DNA of 64,000 nucleotides from Cyanodermella asteris (taxonomy: Eukaryota; Ascomycota; Lecanoromycetes; Ostropales; Stictidaceae). The position numbers and the translations under genes are program-made. Location: the NCBI GenBank assembly GCA_900618795.1, contig UYJD01000004.1, positions 124,001 through 188,000 on the forward strand, given 5' to 3'. Below, piece after piece: positions 24,578 to 59,103 of the stretch (the first letter of the stretch is position 1; each line of letters opens with the position of its first letter). Below the pieces are notes generated by a model. It was given only the letters and a program-made list of their open reading frames with translations. It ran no database searches and was not told the origin of the DNA.

Positions 24578-27500
24578 TTACACGTCATCGGCAAATCTCA
24601 CGGCCTTGCTACCCTTCCTCCCTCTCCCACCTCCACTCCTAAGAGGAACATAGTCGCCTCTATCAGCCTCCTCGCCTCGGCCCGGAATAAGCCTGCTTAT
24701 CCTCGAAAGGATACCTTCTCTTCTCGAAGCAGCAGCTTCAACGGGCACGTCGCCCATCTCCTCATCAAACTCTGCAACTTTCATAGCGCCCACATCCTCC
24801 ACGCCCAGCGCCTCCGGACTCAACCACGCAGGCCGCTTCCAGAGCTTGAGCAGCAGACTACTGCCCACGACGCTGACGCTGCTGGCCGCCATCGCCGCAC
24901 CCGCAGCCATAGGCGGCAACATCAGACCCGCCGGCAGCCCGAAGCCCATCGCGAACGGCAGACCAATGACATTGTATAAACACGCCCAGCCGAGATTCAA
25001 CTTGATGCGGTTGAAGATCGTCCTGGCGAGACAGAGCGCTGCGGGGACGTTGATCATGTCATCTGCGCGCATGAGGACAAGGTCGGCGGCTTCCATGGCG
25101 ACGTCCGTGCCGCTTGCGAGGGCGATACCGACGTCGGCGGAGGCAAGGGCAGGGGAGTCGTTGATGCCGTCGCCAACCATTGCAACTGTGTGGCCTTGAG
25201 CTTTGAGTTCTTGGATAATTTCGCGTTTTGATGAGGGTGAGATGGAGCCGTGGACTTGATCGTCGGGGATTCCAACGGCAGATGCGATCGACAGGGCGGT
25301 GGGGAGGGTGTCGCCAGTTACGAGGGAGGAGGTGATGCCCATGCGACGTAGGGCAGTGATGGCGGCGCGAGAGGTAGGTTTGAGAGTGTCGGCGAGGGAG
25401 AGAGTGCCGGTATATTTGCCATCGATGGCAACGTGAATCTGAGTAGTGCCGGCGGGGAGCTTGGCAGCCGGCTTTGATGATGTAGAGGCTGTCGAAGACG
25501 CCAAATTGGGAGGTAGGGTAATGGCATTTGTTTCAAGGTAGGTCGCGTTGCCAACTAAGACGTTGTATCGACGGCGGTCACTCGAAGTCGGCTCCACGTA
25601 TGCCGAAATTCCCTGGCCAACGCTTGCTTGAAAATCTCCGATCGAGCCCTCGACCATTCCGTCACTGCTGATGCCCAATTCTGTTCGTGCGCCGGCCACA
25701 ATAGCTTTTCCAACGGGATGCTCGCTGCCCATCTCGGCGAGAGCCACAAGAGACCACCAAAGTCGCTTTGCGGACCCAGACCATGCATCGATAAGATCAA
25801 CTTGAGCAATAGACATCTTTCCGAAGGTCAGAGTACCGGTTTTGTCGAAAACAATATGTGTAATTCGTGTAGCAGTCTCCAATGCTGCACCACCCTTGTA
25901 CAAGACGCCCATCTGAGCGCCAACACCGGTACCGACCATGACAGCAGTCGGGGTGCTAAGACCCAGTGCGCAAGGACAAGCGAAGACAATGACTGAGATA
26001 CACAGCTTCATGCAGACCATTATACGGCCACCGCTTTCAGGCTTGAGGAAGATCTCAGGTGGGTGCGCGAGAACATGGCTAAGGATTAGCCAAGTGTAGA
26101 AGGTCAGCAGTCCTAGACCCAGGATTGTTGGCACGAACCAGCCGGCGACAACATCCGCCATGCGCTGGATAGGAGCACGGCTTGTCTGCGCCTCTTGGAC
26201 AAGCTTGACAATTTGAGATAGCTGGGTGTCGCGACCGGCTCGAGTGACCTTGAAGTCGAGTCTACCAGCGCCATTGACAGTGCCAGCCATCAGCAAGCTG
26301 TTTTTGAACTTGTTGATTGGCACGGCTTCGCCAGTAACCATCGATTCGTCCACGTAAGACTGACCTCGAAGAACAGTCCCGTCGGCTGGAACCTTGTCCC
26401 CTGGACGAAGGACACAGATGTCCCCTACCTGCAGAAGCTCGGTAGGAACGACTTTTTCCTCGGCTGCTTGGCTTGAAGGAGCGGCGCCGGACTTCTCGTC
26501 CTGGCTGTCCCATTGCTCTGCGGCCTTCTCGGCGGCGATCGGGTCTGAATAGATGGTAGCCATCGAAGGTGCCAGAGACATCAGATTGGACAGAGCCTTC
26601 GAGGTCTGACCCTTTGCCCGATTCTCCAACCATCGCCCCAGACTGATGAACGTTATCAGCATGGTGCTGGTGTCGAAAACAGTGCTTGGTCTAGTGTGTT
26701 TTGAGTCGAAGAATGACACAAGCATGGCGCCGCAACTGAAGAAGAATGCAGCGCTTGTACCCATGGTAACAAGCACATCCATAGTAGGCGACCTGTGCTT
26801 CAGACTTTTATAGGATGAGATGTAGAACTTCTTCCCGATGCCAAATTGAACGGGTATCGTCAAAAGCAATGCCAGCACATCGCCTAGCCAGAGGCCTGTG
26901 ATCAGCTCAATGGAGCCGAAGTCAAGTGGCTTGATGTACATGGGAAATATCATGGTGATGAAAAAGACAGGAATGGCGAAGGATACTGAGACTTTGAAGT
27001 CGCGGTACCACTGCTGAATCTCCTTGGTCTTGGCCAGAGACTCGAGCTGAGCTGAGTTGTCTTCTGATTCGGACAGTAGCGCATTGTAGCCGAGGCTTTC
27101 GATGTGTTCAACCAGTGCCCGTAGACCAAGCTGAGTGGAGTTGTGTGCGATGTTGGCACGCGATGTGGACAGGCTGATGTCACAGGACGTTACACCTGGT
27201 AGGTCCAGTATTGACTGCCGAAGGGAATCTGCCGATGCCTGATCCTGATGAAGACCAAATATCCTCAAGGAAGAGGTTGTCGTCCCTTTCGCAGCTTCCA
27301 CGACACCGGTGGTGGACGAAACAACCTTGGCATCAAACCCGCGTTCGTCTATGATTTCCACAATCCTGTCAGTCGAGAGCTTTGCAGTGTCGTGAATGAT
27401 GACGGCCCGTTCTGCCAGCAGACTGATGTTGAACTGGTTCACACCATCCAGGTTCTTGAAACCACCTTCCACGGCCGAGGTGCATGCACCACAAGTCATC

Positions 27501-28111
27501 CCCTCGATGGAGACTGTCGTCGTTGAAAGAATGTCCGCCTTGCTTGACATCCTCTGGTGGCCTCTCCCAGACGCAGGTGTAGCTGCCATAGTCTCCAGGA
27601 CCTTCGCATCGAATCCCCGATCCTCAATTATTTCGGCTATCTGTTCGGGCGATATCGTCTCTGGATCATGTTCGACCACTGCTCTTTCGGACAACAACGA
27701 GACGCTGAAGGACGTCACGCCCGGCACGTCCTTGAAGCCGCCTTCGACAGCACTCGTGCAGGCGCCACAAGTCATGCCTTCGACGGAAAGTGTTGTTGTG
27801 ACCATCTTCGGCCCTGCGCCGCTTGCGACCTCTGCAGCGCTGTCATTCGTCGACTGCGATTTCGTGTCCACCACTTCCGCCTCGAAACCTCGGTCTTCGA
27901 TGGTTTCTGCTATCTGCTGCGGAGTGACGATGGATGGATCGTGGATAATGACGGCCCGTTCGGTCATGAGGCTCACTGTCGCGCTTCCAACTCCTGCCAT
28001 GTTCTTGAATCCGCCTTCGACGGCCGCCGTGCAGGCGCCGCATGTCATTCCGCCAACCTTTACCGTAGTCGTCGCCATGTGCGCAGTCGTTGCATTGCTG
28101 GAAGAAGACAT
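24578..28111 (-). CDS. CCC2: copper-transporting P1B-type ATPase
   Basis: Single exon, 1177 aa. Three N-terminal heavy-metal-binding domains carry GMTCGAC, with CxxC pairs at 24/27, 115/118 and 207/210. A fourth domain-like segment at about 280-350 (LRIFGLHQDQ, ISLSTSRANIAHN) lacks the cysteines. The membrane and catalytic core follows: the copper-selective CPC in transmembrane helix 6 is at 712-714, DKTGT has phosphorylated Asp756, SEHP lies in the nucleotide-binding domain, and GDGINDSPA is at 980-988. Ccc2/ATP7 pumps cytosolic Cu(I) into the late Golgi to load multicopper oxidases. The acidic and basic C-terminal tail (about 1100-1177) is cytosolic. An internal ATG at codon 12 is an alternative start. 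Confidence 0.95.
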   Translation of the reverse strand: MSSSSNATTAHMATTTVKVGGMTCGACTAAVEGGFKNMAGVGSATVSLMTERAVIIHDPSIVTPQQIAETIEDRGFEAEVVDTKSQSTNDSAAEVASGAGPKMVTTTLSVEGMTCGACTSAVEGGFKDVPGVTSFSVSLLSERAVVEHDPETISPEQIAEIIEDRGFDAKVLETMAATPASGRGHQRMSSKADILSTTTVSIEGMTCGACTSAVEGGFKNLDGVNQFNISLLAERAVIIHDTAKLSTDRIVEIIDERGFDAKVVSSTTGVVEAAKGTTTSSLRIFGLHQDQASADSLRQSILDLPGVTSCDISLSTSRANIAHNSTQLGLRALVEHIESLGYNALLSESEDNSAQLESLAKTKEIQQWYRDFKVSVSFAIPVFFITMIFPMYIKPLDFGSIELITGLWLGDVLALLLTIPVQFGIGKKFYISSYKSLKHRSPTMDVLVTMGTSAAFFFSCGAMLVSFFDSKHTRPSTVFDTSTMLITFISLGRWLENRAKGQTSKALSNLMSLAPSMATIYSDPIAAEKAAEQWDSQDEKSGAAPSSQAAEEKVVPTELLQVGDICVLRPGDKVPADGTVLRGQSYVDESMVTGEAVPINKFKNSLLMAGTVNGAGRLDFKVTRAGRDTQLSQIVKLVQEAQTSRAPIQRMADVVAGWFVPTILGLGLLTFYTWLILSHVLAHPPEIFLKPESGGRIMVCMKLCISVIVFACPCALGLSTPTAVMVGTGVGAQMGVLYKGGAALETATRITHIVFDKTGTLTFGKMSIAQVDLIDAWSGSAKRLWWSLVALAEMGSEHPVGKAIVAGARTELGISSDGMVEGSIGDFQASVGQGISAYVEPTSSDRRRYNVLVGNATYLETNAITLPPNLASSTASTSSKPAAKLPAGTTQIHVAIDGKYTGTLSLADTLKPTSRAAITALRRMGITSSLVTGDTLPTALSIASAVGIPDDQVHGSISPSSKREIIQELKAQGHTVAMVGDGINDSPALASADVGIALASGTDVAMEAADLVLMRADDMINVPAALCLARTIFNRIKLNLGWACLYNVIGLPFAMGFGLPAGLMLPPMAAGAAMAASSVSVVGSSLLLKLWKRPAWLSPEALGVEDVGAMKVAEFDEEMGDVPVEAAASRREGILSRISRLIPGRGEEADRGDYVPLRSGGGRGRKGSKAVRFADDV

Positions 28112-53294: not shown

Positions 53295-55365
53295 TCAACC
53301 CAATTTTACACTCAACAGCGAACCGTCCCGGCTAGATCCTCTCGTACTCAATGCCCCATCTCTGTCTTCCCTCTCATGGACGCGCCTTCTCAAGTCGCCC
53401 CTCAGGTCCGCCTTCGAACTCGTCCTCGGAATATTGGGCATCACGGCCGGGGCTATCCGAGCCTTCCTCCCAGTCCCGCTAACGACGAAGTCTTCTCTGT
53501 CCCTCTCCTCACGCTGTTCCCGGCGCCTCTCGCTGTCACCATCGACCATGACGACCATCCAGACTCCAATTACCCCATTCGTGCCAACCAGCGGCGTGAA
53601 ATGCAGGAACCTGCTTCGTCCACCGCCCTCCTCGTCGAAGCGCGTGACCCATTTGACTCTGGCTGTTACGCCCCGGCCCTCGGCCAGGGCGGATGTGAGG
53701 TCTTCGCGCACGCGGCTGGAGCCGCCGATGCGGGACATGAGTGGTGATTGCAGGATTCCCGGAACACGGAGCGAAGGCGATGTGAAGAGGATGCGCAGGG
53801 AGGGGTAGGGCCGCACGAGAAGGTAGTGCGTGAAGACGCCCGACAAGCGGCCGTTGGAGGTGAGGGCGCTCGAGGGGAGGTGGCGAGGGAGGTCGTCTTC
53901 GTCGGACGAGGCTTCGCGCAGCACGAGGCGGGGCTTGGCGCTGGGGACGGAAGACGCGACGGGGATTTTGTCGCCGTCGACGTTGTCTCTGTCATCCAAT
54001 CCGTCGTCCAGAAATGTGGCACAGGAAGTCGGTTTCGTGGTCGTGGTCGTGGTCAAGTTCGTGGTGGGAGCCACGGGCGCACTGTCGCGGTAGATCCTGC
54101 CTCCACAATTCGATACGGTCCTTAATTCGGTGTGGTTGAACAGCTCACAAAGCGACTCGAAGCCGTCTTTGCGCGGCTTCAGGGATGATACTGGAGTTGC
54201 TTCTGCTCGCTCCTTTTCCAACATTTTGTTGAGGCCGTCGAGAGGGGTGCCTTCTTTCACAAGCCCCGAGACGTCGATCTGAGCGCCGATGAAGTATCGT
54301 AGGCGGCCGCGAGAGTCGGTAAGCGGAGCCATTATTAGGAGATTGAGGAAAGGTGTTCCATCGCGGCGGTAGTTGAGGATTACTTCGGAGCTTTCGCGAC
54401 CCGCGTCGAGCGCTGCTTTGAGTCGCGCGACTGTGTTCCGGTTGGTTTCTGGTCCCTGTAGGAACCTGCAATTGCGGCCCACAATATAGTCCATGCCATA
54501 TTGAGTCGTGCGATTGAATTCTAGCACAAATCAGTCTGTCGAAGCGTACGCAATAGTTTGTAGGAGACTTACCTTCTGAAGCGAATATAATCGGGTTGTC
54601 CTCCCTCGACGGATCCGTCAGACAGAAGACTTCAGCTAATCCCTCCGAGGCCTGTTGTAAACGCGGCGATAGGGTCCCCGCTATCCTCTTTGATACGGAC
54701 GGGCTAACCACCTGGACGTAAGTGTGTGCTATGTACGCCGGCAGATCGTCCTGCGTGAGAGCTTCAAAAGCCTTGTCCGCCTTTTCTTGAAGCGACTTGT
54801 GGACGACCAGCTCCGGATCGGTCTTGGTGAACTCGAGATGGTTGATCACGTTCAAGTTGTGAGCCAACTGGTTAGCGTAGGCAATTGCCTTCAGTGACTT
54901 GACAGCATCGAGATAGTAGATCAGGGTCGGCACCGAGCTGCGTCTGTGCGTGCTCAAGAAGCCCGCAAATTGGCGGAAGAGTGTAGAGTCCTCGAATATC
55001 ACTCTCAAATGCTCCTGAGAGAACAGTTGCTTTGACCGCGACTCCACGGTTGGGCGTTTGGGTCCGGTGCTAGGTTTAGCTGGCGTGACGAGGTCATATG
55101 AGCCTTCGTCTTCATTTTCGAGGGCGTTGAACTCGTCTGTTTCTCCGGAGATGGGTTTCTCTTGTAGGGGTGGGAGACCAGCTGAAGTGTGATGGTCGGT
55201 CTCGTTTGTAGTGTAGGACTGGTGTGATGTGAGTGAATTGGCTCGGTCAGCTGAGTCTGTGGAGTTTGAGCCACGGTCTCGTTCTCGTTCCCGTTCCGGA
55301 CGGTGGTCGGGATGGACGAGGAGGTCGGCGTCAAAGTCCAGGGAAGTCCGACGAGGGGAGTCCAT
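53295..55365 (-). CDS. RGS-LOV blue-light photoreceptor
   Basis: Exon 1 is 55365-54573. A 52-nt intron (GTAAGT...GCTAG, phase 1) is followed by exon 2, 54520-53295, giving 672 aa. An N-terminal disordered region precedes an RGS-type domain at about 110-215 (LRVIFEDSTLFRQFAGFL, then LIYYLDAVKSLKAIAYA). The LOV domain lies at about 240-360 and has the flavin-adduct motif GRNCRFLQGP with Cys282, plus NYRRDGTPFLNLL and YFIGAQIDVSG. The intron falls inside the LOV domain, and the splice restores FASEEFNRTTQYG. This RGS plus LOV order is that of fungal RGS-LOV receptors such as Botrytis BcLOV4, which bind flavin and associate with membranes on blue light. A second PAS-like segment may lie at about 490-590. 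The Ser/Arg-rich tail is charged. Confidence 0.9.
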
Positions 55366-57195
55366 GGCTTCTACGTCAGGTCGCAGGTCGGCTTCGGACT
55401 AGCTGTACTAGATTTCGTACCACGTGCCAATGAACAGCCTGGATAAATGTATAACAGACTTGACAGCTTGACAGTATCCTGCCAAAAGCGTGTGGCTTCA
55501 GCGGACAATTGAGATGTAGCACGGAGTCCAGGAGAGACAGAAGGTCATCAGAGCAAAGACAGCATCGTGAGACAAGAGCAGCAAGCCCGCGCACCGGGCG
55601 GGATCCATGATGTTATACCAATCTGGCCTGCACGCCCTGTCAATGCTCCACTCTTGCAAGGGGGATTCCAACATTCGACCAAGAGTCTATCGCCCATAGC
55701 CAAGGCCAACTGTACGACGCGCGAGCCTGGCCAAAGGCCGGAACTCGTGTAAAGCGAATCCTACCAGCTTTGCACCCTTAGGTCCCAAAGGAGTCCAGGC
55801 CAGTGGTAGAGGTGACAGAAACGGGCTGAACGCAGAGTGTTGACGCCCCAGCAGGTGCCCAATCAAGCGTATCCCGGCGGTTCGGGTGAGACACTAAGGA
55901 TCGGAAGGTGAGAGCGTGCATCGCTGATTCGATTATGCATCGAGATTGTCTGCAAACAGCCGCACCGCCCGCACCGCTACGAGATTGCGGTGCCGACGCA
56001 TGGCAATCTGGTCCCGCCAGTGCTCGAACAAAATTGCGTGAAATGCGTCACTGTCGGCTGGGAGCTATACCGTGATCGCTGTGCTTGTGGCGTAGGATTG
56101 CTGGGGTCGTCCAGATCGGGGAAGTTCTGTGCATCGACATGCACACGAGCGCGCTTTGATCAGCGCCAGCGCGGTTGTTGGTAAATGGAACGGTCCGGCT
56201 GTGATCGTATATGACTCGCCCACGCGAAACCTATTTCTATCTGCCATCTCGACCAATGGCGGTGCGAGTTCGACCGAGGCGTGGCTTGTCGTGGCTCTGT
56301 TGGAGAAAAGCGTGATCTCGTAGAGCCTGAAGTAGGCACCATCGCCGGCGGGTCGACCTGTCGAAGGCTCAACGTGCACATGCAAGGTCCCGGCGTATGT
56401 CTCGACGCGGCAGAGACCGCATACCTATCGATCCTTCAACAAACTTTGCATTACTGCCCTCGTCGGTAGAGCGCTGATGGTGGGAAACGAAATCGGCGAT
56501 TGCACGACAGCCCTGGTCGGTCAGTCCTCACGTTTCGTCATGACGCGACGAACCTGGATGTGTTGACTCTCAAACCTCGTGGGCATAATCTGCTTCGAAG
56601 ATCGTGATATCCATCGCGAGGGCAATTTCACTCTCCGCGTTTCAGAGCCTTGCAGCACCGCGGCGAGGTCGAAAACCGGTTCCTAGCAACCCGAAGTGTA
56701 CTTAAGGTTCGGCTTAGCGCATTAGCATTAGGTAGGAATAGCTCGCATGCCGGCAATTCACTGGTGTGGCACACTTTCTCGGCAGTGTCGCCGGAGCCGT
56801 CAGCTTTGCGTCTTGGTTTGCTGCAATGTTGCATCACCTATCACCACGCCACTGTACATAGTGGCTCCTCGGACAGTGCTTGCCTTGGTTATACACGCTA
56901 TGGGCGAGTTGATCCCTTCTGTCGAGCGTCTCGTTTGGGACGTGCGCAGATTGTGGCAACCCACAGGACGTGTTGCTTTTGCACACATGGTGCGATAATA
57001 GGTCACGCGGCTAAGCACTTCAGAAGCAATGTTGCGAACGAAAATGGTTACGCTATGCAGGTCAAATCCAAAATGCTGTGTTCAGAGCGCTCGACATGCA
57101 GCGTACAAGTATGTGTGCAGAGACCGAATCATCCAAAACGCCACGCTCGTGAGTGCGAACAGAGGTTGTGCACGGTCAGCAAATTCGTACAAAAG
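55366..57195. other. 1.8-kb intergenic region, no gene seen
   Basis: Promoter side of the RGS-LOV gene and 3' side of the RMD1-like gene. No supported gene. Confidence 0.45.
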
Positions 57196-59103
57196 TCAAA
57201 GCTCTTGGCTACCCAGGTTAGCAGCAGCAGCAGCAAACAAGTCCGTTCCACTTTCAAACGGCACCTCGACAAATCTGCTGCCATTGGCTACAATGTACCG
57301 GGTTCCGTTTTCAACAAAGATGTTGAGTAGTTCCCCTCCTTTTTTACCCGCCTTCTCTTTGCTCAAGATGCCAAACCGCATGAAGACTTCTGTACACGTC
57401 ACGGCAATACTGATCAGAATCAGAATTATGATGATCCATGTCAGCGTGCTCATCTTCGTATCCGCAATGCTGTCGCTCAGGATGGACGCAAGATCCAAGA
57501 AGACCCTGCATCGCTCGTTGAGGGTTTTGACCCGCGGATCGATCTCTAGGTATGTGCGCATTGATGCGTACAGCGGATGCAGAGGTGGCTCCGAACTCCA
57601 AAAGAAGTCAGGTGTGTCAAGGACGTTGGAGCTGAGGTTCACGTCGACGCGGCTTTTGAACAAGGCACCGAGGATACGGAACACTTCGTCGCGCTTCATG
57701 CCCAGTGTCCCGGTCAGCGCAAGCCTCTTTGGAACATGTTGCGCGTCGGTCATCTGGTTTGACATCTGTTGCTCAAATGCACTGAGCTTTGTGCTTTGTG
57801 CGATAGCGTGAGACAACGTCAACTTGATCATGTGGTCGCCACTCCTTAAAGTGATCATGTCGTTGTAGATCCTCGGTCGCGGTTGAGTTGTGTCATATTC
57901 GAAGTGAAACTCCTCGGTCTCGAAGTCGTCCTCTGACATGGGCGCGACAACAAGCGTGTTGGACCCTGCTCTGGGCTTGTCTGCTTTGTTGGCTGATGGT
58001 GTATACAGAGAGTGTACTGATGAGTTGATGGACGTGCCTACGGACGTAGACTTGAGACGTAAAGGACGAATGGGCGTTGGCGGTTGAAAGAAGGTCAAGT
58101 CGGCAAGCACGTCCTTCTCCTGGCTCTCTGTGAAATTCCAGAAGACGACTACGCCATATGAGAAAATGTACATCTCCGCAAATGAGAGCGCATCGGGGCC
58201 CAGTCTGCCAGATGGACTGGCCACCACGATATCGCTATCGCTGTAGCGTCGCTCACCATCGGTCACGAGCGGCGGCGTGGGCGTCCTCTCATCGCCTTGA
58301 CTTGTAAGTGCATGCGGCTCTTCCGACCGCCCTCGCCGTTGTTCCCCTTCGTGATCGCCGCGAATGCTGTACTGGTCGCCTCGGCCTTCCTCGAAGAATC
58401 CCGCACCGTAGTCTCTTCGCTCGTTCCGCTCGATCTCCAGGTCAAGAACAGCTTTACCCCCTGGATGTTTGAGCACTGGACTGCTGCGGACCCGATAGCC
58501 GTCGCTGCCTGGCATTAGGGGCAAATGGTAGACGACGTAAAGACAATCGTCATACAGCTTTGCCTTCGCGCCATGCTGCTCTCTCAAGAAGTTGGCCGTT
58601 GCGGTCAGTTTGTATGCTTGGGCCGTGCAGTACGCCGTGACCCGCGATAAATTCTTCTCTGTTCTCCTTGCCTTGGTAAGCCGCTCTGCATAACTCTTCC
58701 CTCGGCCAGAAGCTCTACGAGAAGCTTCATCGTCGCGTTCTGGCGCAGCATCGTTTTCTTCGTCATAATCTGTCTTCTCTTCAATGTCCACGTCTTCCGA
58801 CTCTGTTTCCGGCAGAAGAACTAGCTTTTCGCTGACCTTTGTGGTTCTGCTCGGCACGGCGGCATTCGCGGGAGTGACGCGACCTGCAAGCTTTGGCTGC
58901 AAAGGATGCTTGCCAGAAGGTGTTCGTGTGTGTCTGGGCCGTGGAGGCCCTCTTGCTTGCGCAGAAGGTATGTCAGAGGTATATTGTAGGACGTTGTCGA
59001 CCGTGATCAAACGTGATGTGGGCCGGCGAGAAGCCAGACCTGGCCTATCCCCTGTGGGACTTGGTCGCTGCTGTTCACGCGCATCTGTTACCTGAGGAAA
59101 CAT
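57196..59103 (-). CDS. RMD1 family (DUF155) membrane protein
   Basis: 635 aa from ATG 59103 (MFPQVTDAREQQ). The N-terminal 150 residues are disordered, with an acidic block (TESEDVDIEEKTDYDEE). The DUF155 domain begins near 165 (RVTAYCTAQAYKLTATANFL) and continues with ALSFAEMYIFSYGVVVFWNF, DMITLRSGDHMIKLTLSHA and LALTGTLGMKRDEVFRILG, the hallmarks of yeast Rmd1/Rmd8 and fission yeast Sif2. A single transmembrane helix lies near the end (TWIIIILILISIAVTCTEVF, about 553-580). About 55 residues follow it, including a FAAAAANL run. An upstream exon is possible: a splice from 59163 to 59089 keeps frame, but that exon has no ATG. The precise function is unknown; the yeast relatives act in meiotic nuclear division. 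Confidence 0.88.
   Translation of the reverse strand: MFPQVTDAREQQRPSPTGDRPGLASRRPTSRLITVDNVLQYTSDIPSAQARGPPRPRHTRTPSGKHPLQPKLAGRVTPANAAVPSRTTKVSEKLVLLPETESEDVDIEEKTDYDEENDAAPERDDEASRRASGRGKSYAERLTKARRTEKNLSRVTAYCTAQAYKLTATANFLREQHGAKAKLYDDCLYVVYHLPLMPGSDGYRVRSSPVLKHPGGKAVLDLEIERNERRDYGAGFFEEGRGDQYSIRGDHEGEQRRGRSEEPHALTSQGDERTPTPPLVTDGERRYSDSDIVVASPSGRLGPDALSFAEMYIFSYGVVVFWNFTESQEKDVLADLTFFQPPTPIRPLRLKSTSVGTSINSSVHSLYTPSANKADKPRAGSNTLVVAPMSEDDFETEEFHFEYDTTQPRPRIYNDMITLRSGDHMIKLTLSHAIAQSTKLSAFEQQMSNQMTDAQHVPKRLALTGTLGMKRDEVFRILGALFKSRVDVNLSSNVLDTPDFFWSSEPPLHPLYASMRTYLEIDPRVKTLNERCRVFLDLASILSDSIADTKMSTLTWIIIILILISIAVTCTEVFMRFGILSKEKAGKKGGELLNIFVENGTRYIVANGSRFVEVPFESGTDLFAAAAANLGSQEL

What the first reader, a model, noticed from the sequence alone, without database searches (positions are those of the whole stretch)
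53295..55365. RGS-LOV photoreceptor gene
An RGS-type domain is followed by a LOV domain with the complete flavin-adduct motif GRNCRFLQGP (Cys282). This is the rare fungal RGS-LOV architecture known from BcLOV4-like proteins, which bind membranes on blue light. It implies direct light control near G-protein or membrane signalling in this fungus.
Basis: partly seen in the sequence, partly recalled or inferred. Interest (0 to 1): 0.7.

Follow-up and report, generated by a model that had tools for sequence, protein, structure and literature searches.

The report
Fungal LOV photoreceptor, RGS domain unproven

Summary
The gene is real: minus strand, exon 1 at 55365-54573, a 52-nt intron, exon 2 at 54520-53295, 672 aa. 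The LOV domain (about residues 241-350) is unambiguous: phototropin LOV2 in the PDB matches at 9.8e-30, and Cys282 aligns with the adduct cysteine.

Pfam lists no RGS. A nine-sequence RGS profile gives 3.3 bits, reached by 52 of 2000 shuffles, while five leave-one-out RGS controls beat every scored shuffle. The post-LOV linker has net charge 0, so the polybasic membrane helix described for BcLOV4 is not evident.

The literature describes two extra fungal LOV types: with RGS (LovB, MoRgs5) and without a recognisable effector (LovA). By the tests run here this gene fits the second, or is an RGS-LOV whose RGS has decayed past recognition; orthology could not be tested. A search of its genome found one other LOV domain, WC-1-like. 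It is a new member of a known kind. Light control of G-proteins or membranes is not established.

The parts
53295..55365 (-). whole gene, 672-aa LOV protein (start ATG 55365, stop at 53295-53297)
   Evidence: splicing and translation
54573..55365 (-). exon 1 (residues 1-264 plus first base of codon 265)
54521..54572 (-). 52-nt intron, GTAAGT...CTGAT...TAG, inside the LOV domain
   Evidence: LOV alignment has no gap at the junction
53295..54520 (-). exon 2 (rest of codon 265 to stop)
54691..55041 (-). N-terminal region, residues 109-225, in the place where RGS-LOV proteins have RGS; RGS not detected
   Evidence: all-helical but low-confidence model
54264..54645 (-). LOV domain, residues 241-350 (span includes the intron)
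54468..54470 (-). codon TGC of the adduct cysteine Cys282
54054..54263 (-). post-LOV linker, residues 351-420, net charge 0
53514..53858 (-). C-terminal domain, residues 486-600, net charge +6, no Pfam family above its cut-off; weak PAS-like pattern in its second half
   Evidence: low-confidence helix-strand-strand-strand model

Best explanation
This is an intact fungal blue-light photoreceptor of the 'additional LOV' kind, found once in its genome, and closest in make-up to the type without a recognisable effector domain (F. fujikuroi LovA; BcLOV3 probably belongs here). Shown: an open, spliceable gene and a complete phototropin-type LOV core with the adduct cysteine, without the 11-residue loop of this fungus's own WC-1-like LOV. 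Inferred from established LOV chemistry (recalled): blue light forms a Cys282-flavin (probably FMN) adduct, Gln345 re-hydrogen-bonds, and the change passes through the post-LOV helix. Inferred with less support: the signal changes the contact between the N-terminal region and the basic, possibly PAS-like C-terminal domain, altering dimerisation or binding of a partner rather than acting as a G-alpha GAP. The N-terminal region is either a different fold or an RGS domain decayed past profile recognition.
For: LOV: Pfam PAS_9 3.7e-15; PDB phototropin LOV2 9.8e-30; 57 of 129 aligned residues identical to AsLOV2; Cys282, Asn281, Arg283, Gln286, Asn314, Asn324 and Gln345 kept. No RGS detected: with working positive controls (five leave-one-out RGS sequences, none reached by any scored shuffle; 470, 409, 461, 468 and 499 of 500 scored). 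Linker not polybasic. Found once: the N-terminal region, the LOV and the C-terminal domain each find only this gene in the own genome, apart from one WC-1-like LOV. Two extra fungal LOV types, with and without RGS, are described in PMC10056346 (passages); LovA is 674 aa, this one 672.
Against: No LovA or BcLOV3 sequence was available, so orthology was not tested, and length similarity is weak evidence (RGS-type LovB is 663 aa, Monilinia LOV3 is 836 aa). The RGS profile score is above most shuffles (52 of 2000 reach it), so a remote RGS is not excluded. No usable structure could be made (mean pLDDT 33.9 and 44.9).
Confidence: 0.6

Rival explanations
1. It is a true RGS-LOV (BcLOV4/LovB/MoRgs5 class) whose RGS domain has diverged beyond Pfam recognition in this lineage; light still controls membrane or G-protein binding.
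For: Same order of parts (N-terminal region, LOV, linker, C-terminal domain of unknown function); weak RGS signal, 52 of 2000 shuffles as high; low-confidence model is all helical; G-alpha matches and other RGS matches are present in the genome. PMC3248559 says MoRgs5 is structurally more similar to yeast Mdm1 (passage), so a divergent RGS in this class would not be odd.
Against: No RGS by Pfam, PDB sequence search or hhalign, while a divergent RGS of the same genome, whose nearest PDB matches are SNX25 and Axin, is found (leave-one-out 16.9 bits, 0 of 461 scored shuffles). HMMER's own alignment of the 3.3-bit hit is a meaningless 5-residue stretch, and the reversed sequence scores 1.5 bits. 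Linker net charge 0. In the very weak hhalign alignment the SEEN motif of RGS19 faces SVPT.
Confidence: 0.3
2. The LOV domain is a light sensor with no dedicated output domain beyond homo-oligomerisation: the flanking regions are only oligomerisation and scaffold parts, as in short-LOV proteins.
For: Neither flank matches any Pfam family above its cut-off. A review table lists BcLOV3 as 'short-LOV' (PMC12941744, passage).
Against: The protein is 672 aa, and both flanks have long hydrophobic stretches with some predicted helix or strand, though the models are of low confidence.
Confidence: 0.08

Closest known systems
F. fujikuroi LovA (FFUJ_11713); probably also Botrytis BcLOV3 (PMC10056346, PMC3886904, PMC12941744, passages only)
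   Same: extra LOV protein, phototropin-like LOV, no recognisable effector domain, similar length to LovA (674 vs 672 aa)
   Different: sequences not available here, so orthology untested; Monilinia LOV3, listed as similar to BcLOV3, is longer (836 aa)
RGS-LOV proteins: BcLOV4, F. fujikuroi LovB, M. oryzae MoRgs5, Z. tritici Zt_Lov1 (passages in PMC8993538, PMC10056346, PMC3248559, PMC9512790)
   Same: LOV/PAS domain after an N-terminal region; for BcLOV4 also a C-terminal domain of unknown function
   Different: RGS domain not detected here; post-LOV linker not polybasic
Plant phototropin LOV2 (oat NPH1-1)
   Same: 57 of 129 aligned residues identical; 13 of 19 pocket or motif positions (list recalled) identical
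   Different: no kinase domain found
WC-1 / VVD LOV proteins
   Same: LOV fold and GRNCRFLQ motif
   Different: lacks the 11-residue loop of the own-genome WC-1-like LOV; no GATA zinc finger match

Membership tests
LOV blue-light photoreceptor domain | PAS fold with NCRFLQ adduct motif and flavin-pocket Asn/Gln residues | tested here: met
LOV blue-light photoreceptor domain | flavin binding and reversible cysteinyl adduct | not testable with these tools
   needs purified protein
RGS-LOV (BcLOV4 class) | N-terminal RGS domain | tested here: not met
   no Pfam RGS listed; none in PDB search; hhalign at shuffle level; custom HMM reached by 52 of 2000 shuffles, with working controls; a decayed RGS is not excluded
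RGS-LOV (BcLOV4 class) | polybasic amphipathic helix between LOV and C-terminal domain (a review calls its role speculated: PMC8993538 passage) | tested here: not met
   linker 351-420 net charge 0; best proline-free 18-residue window has net +2 and contains Gly-Gly; composition test only
RGS-LOV (BcLOV4 class) | light-induced binding to anionic membranes | not testable with these tools
   needs experiment
LovA-type LOV without recognisable effector | extra LOV protein (not WC-1/VVD) with no recognised effector domain | tested here: met
LovA-type LOV without recognisable effector | sequence orthology to LovA (and BcLOV3) | not testable with these tools
   no fungal relatives found in viral contigs or genome contigs
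WC-1/VVD | extra flavin-adenine loop in the LOV domain (recalled); GATA zinc finger for WC-1 | tested here: not met
   11-residue gap relative to own WC-1-like LOV; no GATA match

The most novel reading that the evidence does not exclude
The fungal LOV class 'without recognisable effector' carries a cryptic, decayed RGS domain and a PAS-like C-terminal domain, so it and the RGS-LOV class descend from one three-part photoreceptor, and in this branch light sensing has been uncoupled from G-alpha GAP activity.
Probability: 0.25. Interest if true: 0.5.

Novelty: new member of a known kind. Interest (0 to 1): 0.25.

Why it matters
Fungi have a second tier of blue-light receptors beyond White Collar, and PMC10056346 notes that they have had very little attention (passage). 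In this genome it is the only LOV domain found other than a WC-1-like one, so a knock-out would isolate its role. If the N-terminal region proves to be a decayed RGS, it would link the two extra fungal LOV classes. It also warns against calling RGS-LOV from layout alone.

Tried and rejected
RGS domain: tested by Pfam, PDB phmmer, own-genome family search, hhalign against six RGS sequences (score 12.07 against 200 shuffles with mean 10.9, sd 2.2, max 20.1), MAFFT and BLASTP against a divergent RGS of the own genome (BLASTP E 9.9), and a nine-sequence HMM. Only the last is somewhat above chance, and its alignment carries no information.

Structure: AlphaFold2 without an alignment for residues 95-240 (mean pLDDT 44.9) and 360-612 (33.9). 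Foldseek in the PDB gave no match at E<=0.001 for either (37 matches at E<=10, none named RGS; 907, of which 50 were shown). I draw nothing from these.

C-terminal domain as a second PAS: no PAS in Pfam and no PDB match. An eight-sequence PAS HMM aligns its second half through the last strands at 0.8 bits, but 42 of 2000 shuffles (1309 scored) reach that. Seven of eight known PAS controls were reached by no scored shuffle; the eighth (L006) by 5 of 467 scored. Left as a suggestion.

Relatives: viral contigs and genome contigs gave none, as expected for a fungal gene.

Light-response element GATCGA (motif recalled): 40 in the window against 47.8 expected. One copy, on the gene's own strand at 56428, lies in the 1830 bases upstream. 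No signal.

Full report
The observation. The gene reads on the minus strand from ATG at 55365 to the stop at 53295-53297. A 52-nt intron (54521-54572) interrupts it; of the three AG acceptors found 40-120 nt downstream of the GTAAGT donor, only this one keeps the frame to the end. The intron holds CTGAT, which fits the fungal branch-site pattern CTRAY (recalled). The product has 672 aa and Cys282 sits in GRNCRFLQGP.

The LOV domain. Pfam PAS_9 matches residues 254-349 at 3.7e-15. The best PDB matches are oat phototropin LOV2 chains at 9.8e-30; 149 distinct sequences pass E<=0.01, of which the 60 best were shown. In a pairwise alignment 57 of 129 positions are identical to AsLOV2, with no gap at the splice junction. 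Of 19 positions that I listed from memory as pocket or motif positions of AsLOV2, 13 are identical, including Asn281, Cys282, Gln286, Asn314, Asn324 and Gln345; the 6 changed ones are V/C, I/L, R/K, I/L, F/L and L/M. Compared with the WC-1-like LOV of the same genome it lacks an 11-residue loop. That loop accompanies FAD in WC-1/VVD (recalled), so FMN is likely here.

The RGS claim. Pfam-A with max_evalue 10 lists only PAS_9, PAS and a 0.21 match for the full protein; HMMER's filters drop most matches above about 0.1. PDB phmmer of residues 98-240 gives two unrelated matches with E above 1. A PF00615 search of the own genome at E<=10 returns 7 exon-level places, none of them this gene. hhalign against six RGS sequences gives probability 0.2% and a score inside the range of 200 shuffles. 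A nine-sequence RGS HMM gives 3.3 bits; 52 of 2000 shuffles reach that (1934 of the 2000 were reported with a score), the reversed sequence scores 1.5 bits, and the printed alignment is a meaningless five-residue stretch. Five leave-one-out controls score 16.9 to 125.5 bits and no scored shuffle reaches any of them; they include a divergent RGS of this genome whose nearest PDB matches are SNX25 and Axin. The test therefore has power, and the window region is at best a very decayed RGS. By eye its hydrophobic pattern resembles RGS helices, which is why I keep that reading as a rival.

The membrane claim. A review passage says that BcLOV4 binds anionic lipids, that its RGS domain seems to inhibit this in the dark, and that a polybasic amphipathic linker after the LOV domain is speculated to mediate it (PMC8993538, passage). 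The corresponding linker here (351-420) has 10 basic and 10 acidic residues, and its best proline-free 18-residue window has net charge +2 and contains Gly-Gly. The windows that score highest for charge and moment together lie at 127-147, in the C-terminal domain around 541-559, and at 628-648, where the moment is low. Membrane binding is not excluded, but the reported element is not evident.

What kind it is. PMC10056346 (passages) distinguishes two types of extra fungal LOV proteins: with RGS (LovB, MoRgs5) and without recognisable regulatory domains (LovA, which the passage contrasts with LovB). [quoted passage not shown] Botrytis shows a parallel: bclov3 is among light-induced genes (PMC3886904, passage) and bclov4 is the one blue-light receptor gene not induced by a light pulse (PMC10218500, passage). 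Against this, PMC5034256 does not list bclov3 among the genes significantly higher in light in the wild type (passage). PMC12941744 lists BcLOV3 as short-LOV and BcLOV4 as RGS, LOV (passage). Zt_Lov1 carries a Pfam-detectable RGS (PMC9512790, passage). MoRgs5 has RGS plus PAS/PAC, interacts with MoMagB, and its deletion showed no phenotypic change (PMC3248559, passages). The V. dahliae paper lists rgs-lov and lov-u as separate genes (PMC7493669, passages). By these criteria the window protein fits the type without RGS. I could not align it to any of these, because no fungal relatives were found in the collections. I recall from memory that its N-terminal and C-terminal motifs are conserved in many ascomycete LOV proteins, but no call shows it.

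The C-terminal domain. Residues 486-600 match no Pfam family above its cut-off and no PDB chain. Against an eight-sequence PAS profile the second half aligns through the last strands at 0.8 bits, but 42 of 2000 shuffles (1309 scored) reach that. The low-confidence model has helix-strand-strand-strand there. A degenerate PAS domain is plausible and not proven.

Context. In the own genome (28.5 Mb, 25 contigs), searched exon by exon, the LOV query finds the window gene and a WC-1-like LOV only; there are two rhodopsin-family places, 12 exon-level G-alpha matches of which 8 are over the cut-off, and other RGS matches. Pfam on 10 of the 24 window ORFs of at least 250 aa finds ordinary neighbours in 8, including DUF155 upstream and a heavy-metal P-type ATPase, and nothing in 2. 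None of the 10 suggests a light or G-protein cluster.

Verdict. A real, intact LOV photoreceptor gene and a new member of a known kind; the RGS label is unsupported and the G-protein/membrane reading is speculative.

Noticed in passing
window 53514-53858: C-terminal domain of the LOV protein looks like a divergent second PAS domain without the cysteine; statistically only suggestive.
   Followed up: partly
L001 / L016 (own genome C15:2281669-2282010): WC-1-like LOV with the 11-residue loop, the only other LOV domain that the search found in the genome; no separate VVD among the matches.
   Followed up: partly
window 24578-28111: P-type heavy-metal ATPase frame with four HMA domain stretches.
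   Followed up: no
window 57196-59103: DUF155 (RMND1/Sif2 family) gene, the next minus-strand ORF of at least 250 aa upstream of the LOV gene.
   Followed up: no
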